This document shows, in pieces, positions 55,643-60,445 of a stretch of 64,000 nt of DNA. Location of the stretch: the NCBI RefSeq assembly GCF_000166355.1, contig NC_014652.1, forward strand, positions 1,313,001-1,377,000. The letters run 5' to 3'. The position numbers and the translations under genes were made by a program. Source of the DNA: Caldicellulosiruptor hydrothermalis 108. Lineage in GTDB: Bacteria; Bacillota; Thermoanaerobacteria; Caldicellulosiruptorales; Caldicellulosiruptoraceae. The notes beneath the pieces were generated by a model. That model was not told the origin of the DNA. It did not search any database and saw only the letters and a program-made list of their open reading frames with translations. The stretch's first letter is position 1, and each line of letters starts with the position of its first letter.

Positions 55643-55672
55643 AGAGGGAAAGTGTTGAACTTTCCCTCTTTT
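55643..55672 (+). terminator. Terminator of the glycolytic operon
   Basis: A 9-bp stem GAGGGAAAG/CTTTCCCTC is followed by TTTTCATTTT. A weaker hairpin (TCCAAAG/CTTTGGA) lies about 30 bases before it. The downstream uxaC promoter is built into the loop and 3' arm. Confidence 0.85.
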
Positions 55673-55683
55673 CATTTTATAAT
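55655..55683 (+). promoter_or_regulatory. uxaC promoter embedded in the eno terminator
   Basis: TTGAAC (55655-55660), exactly 17 bp, then a perfect TATAAT (55678-55683). The -35 sits in the loop and 3' arm of the terminator hairpin. Confidence 0.7.
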
Positions 55684-55685
55684 AT

Positions 55686-55720
55686 ATTCAAACAGATTCT
55701 GTTGTGAATTTTGTTTGAAT
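55686..55720. promoter_or_regulatory. Inverted repeat downstream of the uxaC -10 (possible operator)
   Basis: ATTCAAACA (55686-55694) and TGTTTGAAT (55712-55720) are perfect 9-bp inverted arms 17 bp apart, starting at the expected transcription start. The position suits a repressor of hexuronate genes. No regulator gene is present nearby. Confidence 0.5.
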
Positions 55721-55765
55721 CTTTTAGAAATTGTGTTGAAACAAGTTTCAAGGAGGTTTGGAAAG

Positions 55766-57160
55766 ATGAAAAGATTTATGGATGAGGATTTTCTCTTGAA
55801 TAACAAGACTGCTAAAGTGCTTTACGAAAAATATGCAAAGGATATGCCAATTGTAGATTTCCACTGTCATTTAAACCCAAAGGAAATTTATGAAAATAAG
55901 ACGTTTAAAAACATAACAGAGGTTTGGCTTGGAGGAGACCATTACAAGTGGAGGCTTATGAGAACAAACGGAATCGAAGAAAAGTATATAACAGGAGATG
56001 CAGATGACTATGAAAAGTTCTTGGCATGGGCAAAGACCATTCCGATGGCAATAGGAAACCCAATTTATCATTGGACACATTTAGAACTCAAAAGATACTT
56101 TGGAATAGATGATGTATTGAATGAAAGATCTGCACCTATCATTTGGGAAAAGACAAACAAAGTTCTCAAAGAGCTTGGTGCAAGAGATATAATTTTAAAG
56201 TCCAATGTAGAAGTAATCTGCACAACAGACGACCCTGTTGATACACTTGAGTATCATTTAAAACTGAAAGAAGATAAAGACTTCAATGTCAAAGTTTATC
56301 CTACTTTCAGACCTGACAAGGGTGTGAACATCGAAAGAGAAACCTTCATCCCGTGGGTAAAAAAGCTTGCAGAGGTATATGGAAAAAAGATAGAAAGCTA
56401 TGATGAGTTTTTAGATGCTCTAAAGTCAAGAGCAGAGTTTTTCCACTCTGTGGGGTGTCGCATCTCAGACCATGCTATTGACGATATGGTTTTTGCTGAT
56501 GCATCTTTTGATGAAGTAGCTAATATTTTCAAAAAAGCTTTAGCAGGTGAGAAACTTACTGATATCGAAGTTGCAAAATATAAAACATATACATTGGGAT
56601 TCTTAGGGAAAGTTTATTCAAGTCTTGGCTGGGCAATGCAGCTTCATATAAATGCTCTGAGAAACAACAACACACGAATGTTCAATATTTTGGGGCCTGA
56701 CACAGGATATGATTCAATAAACGATGGTCATATAGCCTCTGCACTTGTCAAATTCCTTGATTCATTAGAAAAGGAAAACTCTCTGCCAAAGACAATTTTG
56801 TATTCCTTAAATCCAAAAGATAGCTATGTTCTTGCAACAATCATGGGGTCTTTCCAGGATGGTAGCGTTCCTGGCAAGATGCAGCTCGGTGCAGCTTGGT
56901 GGTTCAACGATAGCAAAGATGGCAACCTTCAGCAGATGAAAGACCTTGCAAATCTTGGGCTTTTGAGCCGATTTGTTGGAATGGTAACAGATTCTCGAAG
57001 CTTTCTGTCTTACGCAAGACATGAATACTTTAGAAGACTTCTTTGCAATTTGATTGGCGAGTGGGTAGAAAACGGCGAATATCCTTATGATTTGGAAACA
57101 CTTGGCAAAATAGTTCAAGGCATTTGTTATTATAATGCAAAAGAGTATTTTGGGTTTTAA
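55766..57160 (+). CDS. uxaC: Glucuronate (uronate) isomerase
   Basis: Isomerises D-glucuronate to fructuronate and galacturonate to tagaturonate. The protein has 464 residues, normal for UxaC. Seen: MPIVDFHCHLNPKEI near residue 24 (metal-binding HxH), EVICTTDDPVDTLEYH near residue 149, GCRISDHAIDDMVFA near residue 232, and MVTDSRSFLSYARHEYFRRL near the end. The frame is open further upstream, but AAGGAGG nine bases before ATG 55766 fixes the start. No other hexuronate genes are adjacent, so it is a single-gene unit. Confidence 0.96.
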   Translation: MKRFMDEDFLLNNKTAKVLYEKYAKDMPIVDFHCHLNPKEIYENKTFKNITEVWLGGDHYKWRLMRTNGIEEKYITGDADDYEKFLAWAKTIPMAIGNPIYHWTHLELKRYFGIDDVLNERSAPIIWEKTNKVLKELGARDIILKSNVEVICTTDDPVDTLEYHLKLKEDKDFNVKVYPTFRPDKGVNIERETFIPWVKKLAEVYGKKIESYDEFLDALKSRAEFFHSVGCRISDHAIDDMVFADASFDEVANIFKKALAGEKLTDIEVAKYKTYTLGFLGKVYSSLGWAMQLHINALRNNNTRMFNILGPDTGYDSINDGHIASALVKFLDSLEKENSLPKTILYSLNPKDSYVLATIMGSFQDGSVPGKMQLGAAWWFNDSKDGNLQQMKDLANLGLLSRFVGMVTDSRSFLSYARHEYFRRLLCNLIGEWVENGEYPYDLETLGKIVQGICYYNAKEYFGF

Positions 57161-57184
57161 AATAAGAAAAGATTATGGCAAAAT

Positions 57185-57217
57185 GGGTGGGCTAAACAAC
57201 CACCCTTATTTTTTTTA
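57185..57217 (+). terminator. Terminator after uxaC
   Basis: A 6-bp GC-rich stem GGGTGG/CCACCC, then TTATTTTTTTT. Confidence 0.75.
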
Positions 57218-57775
57218 ACTGTGGTTCATATAAAGTTAATTTTGGACTTAAATCCTACGATAGTAGCAACTCTGCCTTATTCTAAACCCAAGAAAATTGA
57301 AGCAATTTTAAGCTATTTCAAGAAAAACATAATTTTAGCTCAAAAATTGGCGAAATATTGTCTAAAAAAAGAAATAAACGGGATTGACAGTGTGAAAATG
57401 TATAAGATAAAATTTGCATAGAAATTCCAAGAATAAGTTTACAGAAAAAATAGTTTAAGTATAACAAACCCTAAATAAGATAATAAAGAATCAATTACAC
57501 TAAAAATCAAATAGAATGAAGAAATGAGAAGAATATACTATTGTTTAAAGTAGGATAATGTAACAAAATAAATGTTAGTTTCAAAAGTTTTTGTTGATTT
57601 AAAATAATCACAGTACTAATAGTAAGTTTGTATAATGGATCGAGGAACGAATTTAAGATAGAACAATAAAATTATTTAAGAAGTCAAGCCAAAAGCGAGG
57701 TTTGTATAGAGTATAACGTTTTTATGTGATCATATAAAATATGTGTTTACATATTTAAAAGGTGGAGTTTTGGGT
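57218..57775. other. AT-rich region without a convincing gene
   Basis: About 560 bases, very AT-rich, with scattered stop codons in all frames. A 66-codon frame at 57221-57421 starts with GTG inside the terminator tail and has no ribosome site, so it is not called. No tRNA-like fold, terminal inverted repeat or transposase remnant was recognised. A possible -10 (TATAAA, 57734-57739) lies upstream of the caspase-like gene. It may be decayed sequence. Confidence 0.5.
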
Positions 57776-58445
57776 GTGAGCAAATATAGTAGTATATTCG
57801 GTTCATGCTTATATGGTGATAGAGCAGGCGCTGAATATGTTACCAACCTAAAAAATAAACTTTCTCCAATTATGAATGCAGCTTTTGTTAGACTTAACAG
57901 TGATGCAAATGAATCTCATTTAAAAGATATTACATTAACCTCAAATGTTGATTTGTTAGTATATTCAGGACATGGATTAAAATTTACTAAAGAGAATGCT
58001 GCTCATTTTTTTTGCAAGAAGTACAGGGCAATCTTGGCATAATAGTTCAATGGAATACAATGACGAAGTAAATGCAAAAACAAATGAAGTTCGATTTGGG
58101 CACAACATGCTGAAATGGGTAGTAATGTATACATGCAACTGGCTTACTAACGATGGTGACCAAGAAAAGTTAGAGAATATTTATAAAACATTTGAAGGTG
58201 CAACTTTAGTTATGGGTTTTGCATCAACAATGTATTTAGATAGTCGTGAAGCAAACTATTTTGGTGATCTTTTGGTGAACAGTAAAAAATCTTTTAAAGA
58301 TGCATTTTTTACCGCAGCAAGGAAGTATCAGGTACAAAGGCAAAATGGTGACAGTATAGCTCGTGTTATGGGCTACACATTAGCAAAGAATGATTCATTG
58401 TTTAATAATTTTTACGGATGCCGTCCCAAAATGAGTGGTATGTAA
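57776..58445 (+). pseudogene. Caspase-like (DUF6345-type) cysteine peptidase homologue, frameshifted
   Basis: Two overlapping frames together form one protein of about 222 residues. The first frame (SKYSSIFGSCLYGDRAGAEY) ends in a beta strand and His motif VDLLVYSGHG. The second continues GQSWHNSSMEYND and then WVVMYTCNWLTNDGD, where the Cys follows a hydrophobic strand, as in caspase/gingipain folds. They are joined at a run of eight T (58006-58013); reading seven T restores a single frame through FFARSTGQSW. GTG 57776 is used as start with AAAGGTGGAG nine bases before. DUF6345 assignment is from memory of the family. It could be a pseudogene, a sequencing error or a slippage-expressed gene. 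Confidence 0.7.
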
Positions 58446-58541
58446 ACTAAAAGCAAGGATATTCAATAATAGACACTATAACAATTCCTCATACTGGTCA
58501 AATAATACCATAAATATTGGAAGAAAAGGGAGTGAGAAAAA

Positions 58542-59456
58542 ATGACAATGCGAAAAAATATTAAAATTTATTTGTTGTCTTTTTTAACAATTTTGATTAT
58601 TTTTGCTATAAGTTTTGTTTTGTATATTAATTCAAACAAAATACCAAAACTCAATATTCCTATGCCCGGACAGGAAATTCCTCAAATAGACTATAAAGTG
58701 ACTGCAAAATTTGATAATTTACCTACTGAAGCTATGGTATATAGATTTAAAAAGCCACAGGATGTCGACTTTTACTCAATTGCAAAGAAATTTGGCATTA
58801 GCGGAGATGTAAAATATGACTCAGAAAACAAAAGATACACAATAAATGATGAATCTGGACGTTATTTCGAATACGAAGTAGAGACAGGAAAATGGCTTTA
58901 TATTGATTTCAAGGAAAAGAATAATTACGAACCACAAAATATACCTTCTGATGAAGATTCCAAGAGGATTGCAATTGAATTTTTGAAAAAAGAAGGTCTT
59001 TACAATGAGAGATTTAATTACTGTACAGTTGTTCCTGAAGCATCGGGAGATAAGCTTACAAATGATTATAAGATTCATTGTTGGGATGTATATTTTTATC
59101 CATCGATAAATGGGAAACCAGTATATGGAGTTTCAAGGATAATGGTAAGTGTAGGTGATAATGGCAAGATAATAGAAGTCGACAAACTATACAAGGATAT
59201 TGAGGAATATAAAAAAGTTAAAATAGTTCCTGCAGAAAAAGCTTTAGAAAAAGTTAAAAAAAGGCAAGCTTCAAACAATATTAATCCAAGGGCTAAGTCT
59301 GCCACTATCAATAAAGTTTTTCTTGCCTACTGGGAAGATGCAGGGACAATTGAAGAACAGCCATATTTGCAACCTGTCTGGGTGTTTGCTGGAGAGGCAG
59401 TTACTGAGGATGGGAAATATGAATCATTTGATGCTGTTGTTCCAGCTATTGAATAA
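58542..59456 (+). CDS. Membrane-anchored extracytoplasmic protein, PepSY/YycI-like
   Basis: A 304-residue protein of unknown function. A transmembrane segment (IYLLSFLTILIIFAISFVLY, about 9-28) anchors a large outside part. Two repeats look like PepSY/YycI-type alpha-beta units: about 60-140 (KKFGISGDVKYDSENKRYTI) and about 185-290 (GKPVYGVSRIMVSVGDNGKI, then EEQPYLQPVWVFAGEAV). Such domains often act as protease inhibitors or signal modulators. GGGAGTGA precedes the ATG. It lies 96 bases after the caspase-like gene on the same strand and may be its functional partner, which is inference from position. Confidence 0.72.
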   Translation: MTMRKNIKIYLLSFLTILIIFAISFVLYINSNKIPKLNIPMPGQEIPQIDYKVTAKFDNLPTEAMVYRFKKPQDVDFYSIAKKFGISGDVKYDSENKRYTINDESGRYFEYEVETGKWLYIDFKEKNNYEPQNIPSDEDSKRIAIEFLKKEGLYNERFNYCTVVPEASGDKLTNDYKIHCWDVYFYPSINGKPVYGVSRIMVSVGDNGKIIEVDKLYKDIEEYKKVKIVPAEKALEKVKKRQASNNINPRAKSATINKVFLAYWEDAGTIEEQPYLQPVWVFAGEAVTEDGKYESFDAVVPAIE

Positions 59457-59575
59457 GATTTTGAGGTTCATTGTTAAAGGTTGAGAAGATAGTCAAAAAA
59501 CAATAATTTTCAATAACCAAAATCAAGCATTTGATGGTATTAAATGTTAATATTGAACTATACAGTAAAAAGGCA

Positions 59576-59609
59576 AGAGGGTTGGCTGGCAATTTTGCCC
59601 CAACCCTCT
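59576..59609 (+). terminator. Terminator or hairpin after the PepSY-like gene
   Basis: AGAGGGTTGG/CCAACCCTCT with an inner GGCA/TGCC extension; a long stable stem followed by ATTATTATCTT, a moderate T-tract. The remaining sequence to 59714 (about 105 bases) shows nothing recognisable. Confidence 0.7.
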
Positions 59610-59714
59610 ATTATTATCTTCGCTAACCTTTCTATGTTATAGACAATACAAATCAAACTCTACTTTAGCTTCACACCCTTCATACCCTTGAGCAGAAATC
59701 TTCTAAGTCCTTTG

Positions 59715-59753
59715 TTGAATCTCACGTAAATATGTGATACACTATTTTACGTG
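59715..59753. promoter_or_regulatory. Promoter with overlapping inverted repeat before vapBC
   Basis: TTGAAT (59715-59720), 17 bp, and TACACT (59738-59743) with an extended TGA in front. Perfect inverted arms CACGTAAA (59723-59730) and TTTACGTG (59746-59753) flank the -10. This fits an autoregulatory operator for the ribbon-helix-helix antitoxin. Confidence 0.6.
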
Positions 59754-59766
59754 GAGGTGAAATAGT

Positions 59767-60015
59767 ATGCGTAAATATCAGAACATTACTTTGTCTCTTC
59801 CTAAGGAACTAATTCAAAAGATAAAACATATTGCTGTTGAAAGGAATACATCTATTTCTGCGCTGCTCACAAGCTTGTTAGAAGAACTTGTAAATAGAGA
59901 AGAGTCATATCAAAAAGTCTATTTACAACATCTTAAACTTTTAGAAGAAGGATTTGACCTTGGAACAGGTGGAGCAATCACGTGGAGGAGAGAAGATTTA
60001 TATGAAAGAAAGTAA
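59767..60015 (+). CDS. vapB: Ribbon-helix-helix antitoxin (VapB/CopG type)
   Basis: An 82-residue protein. The N-terminal half is a ribbon-helix-helix DNA-binding fold (NITLSLPKELIQKIKHIAVE then NTSISALLTSLLEELV). The C-terminal part (GFDLGTGGAITWRREDLYER) is the flexible toxin-binding tail. It overlaps the PIN toxin gene by 14 bp. Antitoxin and complex are expected to repress their own promoter through the inverted repeat just upstream. Confidence 0.88.
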   Translation: MRKYQNITLSLPKELIQKIKHIAVERNTSISALLTSLLEELVNREESYQKVYLQHLKLLEEGFDLGTGGAITWRREDLYERK

Positions 60016-60445
60016 CTATCAATTTGTTGACACAAATATTTTGGTCTATGCTTATGATAAATCTGCAGGTGAAAAGCACGTAGTAGCTAAACAAATTGTG
60101 GAGAAACTTTGGAAAGAAAGAAATGGTGCTCTGAGCACTCAAGTTCTTCAAGAGTTTTTTGTTGTTGTTACAAAAAAGGTTAAAAATCCTTTAAGTTTTG
60201 AAAGCGCTTTTCAAATCATATCAGACTTAAAGTTATGGAAGATAGCCACAATTGAAGTAGAAGATATTTTAGAAGCTATAAAGATTTCACAAAGATATAA
60301 AATATCTTTTTGGGATGCTTTGATACTTTGCAGCGCTATAAGTTTAGGGTGTTCGGTAATATGGAGTGAAGATTTAAATTCTGGTCAGTATTTTGGGAAA
60401 ATAAAAGTAGTAAATCCTTTTTTGTGTTCACCTCTTGACATCTAA
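60002..60445 (+). CDS. vapC: PIN-domain toxin ribonuclease (VapC type)
   Basis: A 147-residue PIN nuclease with all acidic metal ligands: Asp10 (QFVDTNILVYAYD), Glu51 (LQEFFVVVT), Asp105 (ISFWDALIL) and Asp124 (IWSEDLNSGQ). The frame is open upstream inside the antitoxin gene, but GGAGGAG 11 bases before ATG 60002 sets the start. VapC toxins usually cut tRNA or rRNA. The target is unknown. No truncation is seen, so the pair looks functional. Confidence 0.9.
   Translation: MKESNYQFVDTNILVYAYDKSAGEKHVVAKQIVEKLWKERNGALSTQVLQEFFVVVTKKVKNPLSFESAFQIISDLKLWKIATIEVEDILEAIKISQRYKISFWDALILCSAISLGCSVIWSEDLNSGQYFGKIKVVNPFLCSPLDI

What the first reader, a model, noticed from the sequence alone, without database searches (positions are those of the whole stretch)
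57776..58445. Caspase-like gene split by a T8 homopolymer, between its His and Cys motifs
The sequence shows a His-Gly motif (VYSGHG) in one frame and a strand-plus-Cys motif (WVVMYTCNWL) in the next, with a run of eight T (58006-58013) at the switch. Removing one T gives one continuous protein. Caspase-like peptidases in bacteria are often effectors, and homopolymer runs can be phase-variable or rescued by polymerase slippage. It may be a contingency switch, a fresh pseudogene or a sequencing error.
Basis: partly seen in the sequence, partly recalled or inferred. Interest (0 to 1): 0.68.

Follow-up and report, generated by a model that had tools for sequence, protein, structure and literature searches.

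The report
Broken caspase-like gene in decaying island
The split gene is a dead copy of a secreted caspase-like protein of unknown function: it carries several lesions, not just the T-run frameshift, and lies in a decaying DNA insertion beside an intact partner gene, so it is unlikely to be an on/off switch.

Summary
A run of eight T (58006-58013) splits one gene into two frames, with His-Gly (VYSGHG) in one and the Cys motif (MYTCNWL) in the other. Both halves belong to Pfam DUF6345. Related genomes of the genus carry intact 281-282 aa versions with six or seven T at this point.

The contingency-switch reading is not supported. The copy has at least four lesions: no signal peptide (homology starts at residue 28), the T8 frameshift, a second frameshift at about 58427, and a stop at 58448. 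It lies in a 2.55-kb insertion absent from most relatives, between a transporter-gene stub and a transposase stub. Five of the window's seven 8-base A/T runs sit inside long open frames, including purD and atpG. The decay is young: dN/dS is 0.23 and all 37 tested family-invariant residues are kept. A sequencing error at T8 would not rescue the gene.

The caspase-like call is plausible, not proven: His and Cys are invariant in 14 homologues, but the fold model failed (pLDDT 44).

DUF6345 is usually followed by an exported YycI-like partner; several loci have a truncated DUF6345 beside an intact partner, which suggests, without proving, an effector-inhibitor pair.

The parts
55652..57160 (+). 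Left flank of the insertion: glucuronate-isomerase-like gene (uxaC; name from my own reading of the protein); its 3' end (the matched 163 bp) is 88-99% identical in genus relatives
57163..59712 (.). 2.55-kb stretch absent from relatives (about 103 bp stand between the same two flanks in G008 and G005): decaying inserted island
57203..57565 (+). 5' leader and first ~10 codons (57524-57553, MRRIYYCLK*) of a C39-peptidase ABC transporter gene whose body is gone; the same leader precedes long transporter frames in G008 and G009
57743..58042 (+). Upstream fragment of the DUF6345 gene with the His-Gly motif (57959-57976); homology to intact genes begins at 57750-57755 (residue 28), signal peptide missing
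58006..58013 (+). T8 run; intact relatives have T6 or T7; +1 frameshift in the conserved AAHFFAR stretch
57996..58445 (+). Downstream fragment of the DUF6345 gene with the Cys motif (58116-58145)
58418..58513 (+). Homologous C-terminal tail stranded in another frame by a 1-base loss after ...GCRP (about 58427), with an in-frame TAA at 58448-58450
58542..59456 (+). Intact partner gene, 304 aa, one N-terminal transmembrane segment and YycI-like exported domains; purifying selection (dN/dS 0.23-0.27)
59492..59717 (-). 3' stub of a DDE transposase gene (DDE_Tnp_1_6/DUF772 type); full copy read in G008 (L039)
59767..60445 (+). Right flank: VapB/VapC-like pair (DUF6364-type antitoxin, PIN-domain toxin), conserved in the genus at this site

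Best explanation
The locus is a recently killed copy of an exported DUF6345 gene. The ancestral two-gene cassette (DUF6345 protein with a probable clan-CD His/Cys dyad, plus a membrane-anchored YycI-like partner) sits in an insertion between uxaC and vapBC. The caspase-like gene lost its 5' end, including the signal peptide, probably at a recombination breakpoint near 57750. It also gained one T in a T7 tract by ordinary replication slippage, lost a base near its 3' end, and acquired a stop codon. The partner gene stayed intact. Shown: the lesions, the empty site, the stubs on both sides, and purifying selection until recently. Inferred: order of events, slippage as the cause of T8, and peptidase activity of the intact relatives (probably an extracytoplasmic peptidase regulated or inhibited by the YycI-like partner).
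For: Three tblastn pieces in alternating frames covering residues 28-280 of 281. Six intact homologues of 281-282 aa, with a Sec-type signal (peak hydropathy 2.7-3.0; the window has no comparable signal in any frame), in five genus mates. 3' alignment showing the lost base and TAC to TAA. Empty site in G001, G005 and G008, flanks 93-98% identical. Transporter stub and transposase stub within the same 2.55 kb. dN/dS 0.23 and 37 of 37 invariant residues kept, so the decay is young. Truncated DUF6345 remnants also occur in G007 and at a second site in G002.
Against: Only one genome per species is held, so fixation of the lesions in the species is untested. C-terminal tails vary across the wider family, so the 3' lesions alone might be tolerated. 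All 37 invariant core residues are kept, which a still-used gene would also show. A GTG at 57776 preceded by AGGTGGAG could start a shorter, signal-less product.
Confidence: 0.83

Rival explanations
1. Phase-variable contingency gene: T7/T8 changes switch an active caspase-like effector on and off.
For: The T8 lies exactly at the frame change; slippage changes such runs; the core is otherwise well conserved.
Against: No signal peptide and a broken 3' end in either state. Relatives carry T6 or T7, not a long tract. Five of seven 8-base A/T runs in the window lie in long open frames, including purD, atpG and a pseudouridine synthase.
Confidence: 0.04
2. The T8 is a sequencing or assembly error and the real run is T7.
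For: Single-base homopolymer miscalls are common; the core looks selected.
Against: Two further disabling changes and a missing 5' end are not in homopolymers of that length and would remain. The gene would still be a truncated, signal-less copy.
Confidence: 0.12
3. A still-used shortened protein: transcriptional slippage on T8 yields some joined cytoplasmic product from the GTG at 57776.
For: Shine-Dalgarno-like AGGTGGAG before 57776; Baranov et al. 2005 warn that such genes can be miscalled pseudogenes (PMC1088944); all 37 tested invariant residues are kept.
Against: The same paper puts the selected-against length at nine in a large share of genomes. A start at 57776 removes the first core strand that aligns with Peptidase_C14 strand 1. 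Intact relatives are exported. Neighbouring genes in the insertion are stubs.
Confidence: 0.05

Closest known systems
DUF6345 (Pfam PF19872), function unknown
   Same: Window fragments and all intact relatives match it; the intact relatives are exported, about 280 aa
   Different: The window copy is truncated at the 5' end and twice frameshifted
Clan CD cysteine peptidases (Peptidase_C14: caspases, metacaspases, orthocaspases)
   Same: His-Gly after a hydrophobic strand, then Cys after the next strand, in the right order; the full-length profile alignment pairs strand 1, His and Cys
   Different: No Pfam C14 match in the scans; no confident fold model; no activity data; exported, whereas caspases act inside the cell
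YycI, regulator of the WalK (YycG) histidine kinase (PDB 2o3o), for the partner
   Same: N-terminal anchor, similar two-domain exported part; Foldseek probability 1.00, E about 1e-6, TM about 0.5
   Different: 11-12% identity, no Pfam YycI match, paired with DUF6345 rather than lying in a walRK operon
Frameshifted pseudogenes in IS-rich islands
   Same: Several lesions, truncated neighbours, empty site in relatives
   Different: Nothing notable beyond the gene's identity

Membership tests
DUF6345 (PF19872) | Score above Pfam gathering cut-off | tested here: met
   Downstream half 73.6 bits against 26.9; upstream half 16.8, below it; intact relatives 76-82 bits
Clan CD / caspase-like peptidase | Catalytic dyad in the order His then Cys, at the ends of consecutive strands | tested here: met
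   His and Cys invariant in 14 of 14 homologues, in the right order; window keeps both. That they end strands is read from sequence only. Clan definition from PMC4357240
Clan CD / caspase-like peptidase | Caspase/haemoglobinase fold | tested here: inconclusive
   AlphaFold2 pLDDT 44; Foldseek best E 2.0, though caspases recur in the list. hhalign to C14: P 4e-4, probability 35%, score 33.4 against a maximum of 20.1 in 100 shuffles
Clan CD / caspase-like peptidase | Peptidase activity lost on His or Cys mutation | not testable with these tools
   Needs expression of an intact relative
Peptidase_C14 (PF00656) | Score above Pfam cut-off | tested here: not met
   No C14 hit up to E = 1 for window halves or intact relatives
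Phase-variable contingency locus | Gene otherwise intact, so that run length alone decides expression | tested here: not met
   5' truncation, second frameshift and stop codon
Phase-variable contingency locus | Run length varies within the species | not tested
   One genome per species is held
Pseudogene | More than one independent disabling lesion relative to intact homologues | tested here: met
   Four lesions
YycI (partner gene) | Similar fold to solved YycI | tested here: met
   Model pLDDT 88; 2o3o chains at probability 1.00, TM about 0.5
YycI (partner gene) | Sequence match to the YycI family | tested here: not met
   No Pfam or NCBIfam YycI match

The most novel reading that the evidence does not exclude
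DUF6345 and its YycI-like partner form an undescribed exported two-gene system of Gram-positive-type bacteria, in which a caspase-like peptidase is held in check (or reported on) by a membrane-anchored partner. The peptidase gene is repeatedly lost while the partner is kept, as expected for a costly effector with its inhibitor. The window is one such loss.
Probability: 0.27. Interest if true: 0.6.

Novelty: new member of a known kind. Interest (0 to 1): 0.33.

Why it matters
It removes a tempting but unsupported case of a phase-variable bacterial caspase. It also points to something undescribed in the open papers searched: a conserved gene pair joining a probable clan-CD peptidase to a YycI-like exported protein, with a pattern of peptidase loss and partner retention that can be tested directly.

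Tried and rejected
Contingency switch and slippage rescue: rejected because of the extra lesions and shorter runs in relatives. Defence-system membership: no PADLOC match for DUF6345; one trivial weak hit for a partner. Phage or plasmid carriage: no match of the DUF6345 gene in either collection; a viral-contig scan found no relative, though its pattern fell largely in the signal peptide. RNA element in the insertion: no Rfam match. AlphaFold2 of an intact DUF6345 homologue from four sequences failed (pLDDT 44), so its Foldseek list was not used as evidence. The first scan of genome contigs found nothing, with one of its two patterns in the signal peptide; the core alignment worked. No solved structure matches either protein by sequence. 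No paper in the library mentions DUF6345.

Full report
What was claimed and what is there. The window is part of a 2,770,676-base single-contig genome. The T8 run is at 58006-58013. The frame before it carries VYSGHG and the frame after it carries WVVMYTCNWL. Both halves fall in Pfam DUF6345, the second well above the cut-off, the first below it.

Relatives. Seven of twelve genomes of the genus, counting this one, carry DUF6345 DNA. Five hold intact genes (six copies; G011 has two) of 281-282 aa that start at a TTG after an AAGGGGG stretch and open with a Sec-type signal, MIKNKF(F/Y)ISLALIIILIFNF. At the T run they read CAC TTT TTT GCA or CAT TTT TTT GCA, i.e. T6 or T7; the window has one T more.

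More than one lesion. tblastn with an intact protein of 281 aa finds three pieces in the window: residues 28-117, 114-254 and 254-280, in frames 1, 2 and 1. So the signal peptide is missing (no comparable hydrophobic stretch in any frame upstream), the T8 shifts the frame, a base is missing after GCRP at about 58427, and the tail holds a TAA (58448-58450) where most relatives have TAC. The C-terminal tail is otherwise recognisable up to 58513.

Age. Over the comparable core, dS between the window copy and relatives is 0.86-1.13 with dN/dS 0.19-0.25, and all 37 testable columns that are invariant among eleven intact homologues are kept in the window. The gene was therefore under selection for most of its history and the lesions are young. 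The flanking genome is far closer to relatives (about 89-98% identical) than this cassette (about 74-76%), so the cassette is probably a horizontally acquired or paralogous lineage rather than the orthologue of the copies beside gltX in the other species.

The insertion. In G008, G005 and G001 the same left flank (uxaC end) and right flank (VapBC-like pair) are joined by about 100-160 bases; in the window they are separated by 2,550. Inside lie four things: the leader and first ten or so codons of a C39-peptidase ABC transporter (57203-57565; the long transporter frame follows the same leader in G009 and G008); the broken DUF6345 gene; an intact partner gene; and the 3' end of a DDE transposase gene (59492-59717) whose full copy was read in G008. 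G009 has about 9 kb at the same site, with transporter, HlyD-like and transposase-like genes (the last two named from my own reading). This is a decaying island; a broken gene there needs no special explanation.

The T run. Seven A/T runs of eight occur in the window; five lie inside long open frames, three of them purD, atpG and a pseudouridine synthase. Baranov et al. 2005 (PMC1088944) found that the length selected against in coding regions is nine in a large share of genomes; they also warn that slippage can rescue apparent pseudogenes. Here the other lesions make rescue moot.

Is it caspase-like? The His and Cys are invariant in 14 homologues, including very distant ones with SGHG and the Cys after a second hydrophobic strand. 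A profile alignment to Peptidase_C14 domains taken from other genomes of the phylum gives P 4e-4 but only 35% probability; at low stringency strand 1, His and Cys all pair. The score of 33.4 compares with a maximum of 20.1 in 100 column shuffles, 13.5 for the reversed profile and 17.1 for the unrelated partner. The AlphaFold2 model is unusable (pLDDT 44). Verdict: plausible, unproven.

The partner and a wider pattern. The gene after DUF6345 is the same family in every genus copy and in Anoxybacillus, Paenibacillus, Acetocimmeria and Syntrophomonadaceae loci. Its model is good (pLDDT 88) and matches YycI (2o3o) with probability 1.00. An intact DUF6345 with an intact partner is seen in L002-L006, L008, L017 and L024-L027. 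A truncated DUF6345 beside an intact partner is seen in the window, G007, a second site in G002, L019 and L030; the L023/L029 partner runs off its contig. The reverse was not seen among loci that have this partner, although the search was made from DUF6345. Three divergent loci (L020-L022) lack a detectable partner. This asymmetry fits an effector with an inhibitor, but also fits upstream truncations that simply hit the first gene; some loci are draft contigs, and the number of independent events is small. It is a lead, not a result.

Noticed in passing
58542-59456; L002-L008, L017-L019, L023-L027, L029, L030: DUF6345 is almost always followed by a YycI-like exported partner gene; the partner stays intact in several loci where DUF6345 is truncated.
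   Followed up: partly
57203-57565: Leader and first ~10 codons of a C39-peptidase ABC transporter gene with the rest missing; related leader sequence occurs several times per genome across the genus, often in clusters.
   Followed up: partly
59492-59717: 3' stub of a DDE transposase gene (DDE_Tnp_1_6/DUF772); more than ten copies of the stretch in G008.
   Followed up: yes
L038 (G009:C1:1275700-1286000): The same uxaC-vapBC site holds about 9 kb with a C39 ABC transporter, an HlyD-like gene and transposase-like genes in G009: a shared insertion site.
   Followed up: partly
L003, L005, L008 (gltX flanks): In several species the DUF6345 cassette is flanked on both sides by a gltX 5' segment, longer on one side and fragmentary on the other, as if duplicated with it.
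   Followed up: no
G003, G005, G008, G011 (one search places): Short C-terminal remnants of the partner lie within 0.1-1.3 kb of the transporter-leader repeats in four genomes.
   Followed up: no
L022 (1354-3103, - strand): A divergent DUF6345 gene also appears frame-split, with the rest of the protein continuing in the next frame.
   Followed up: no
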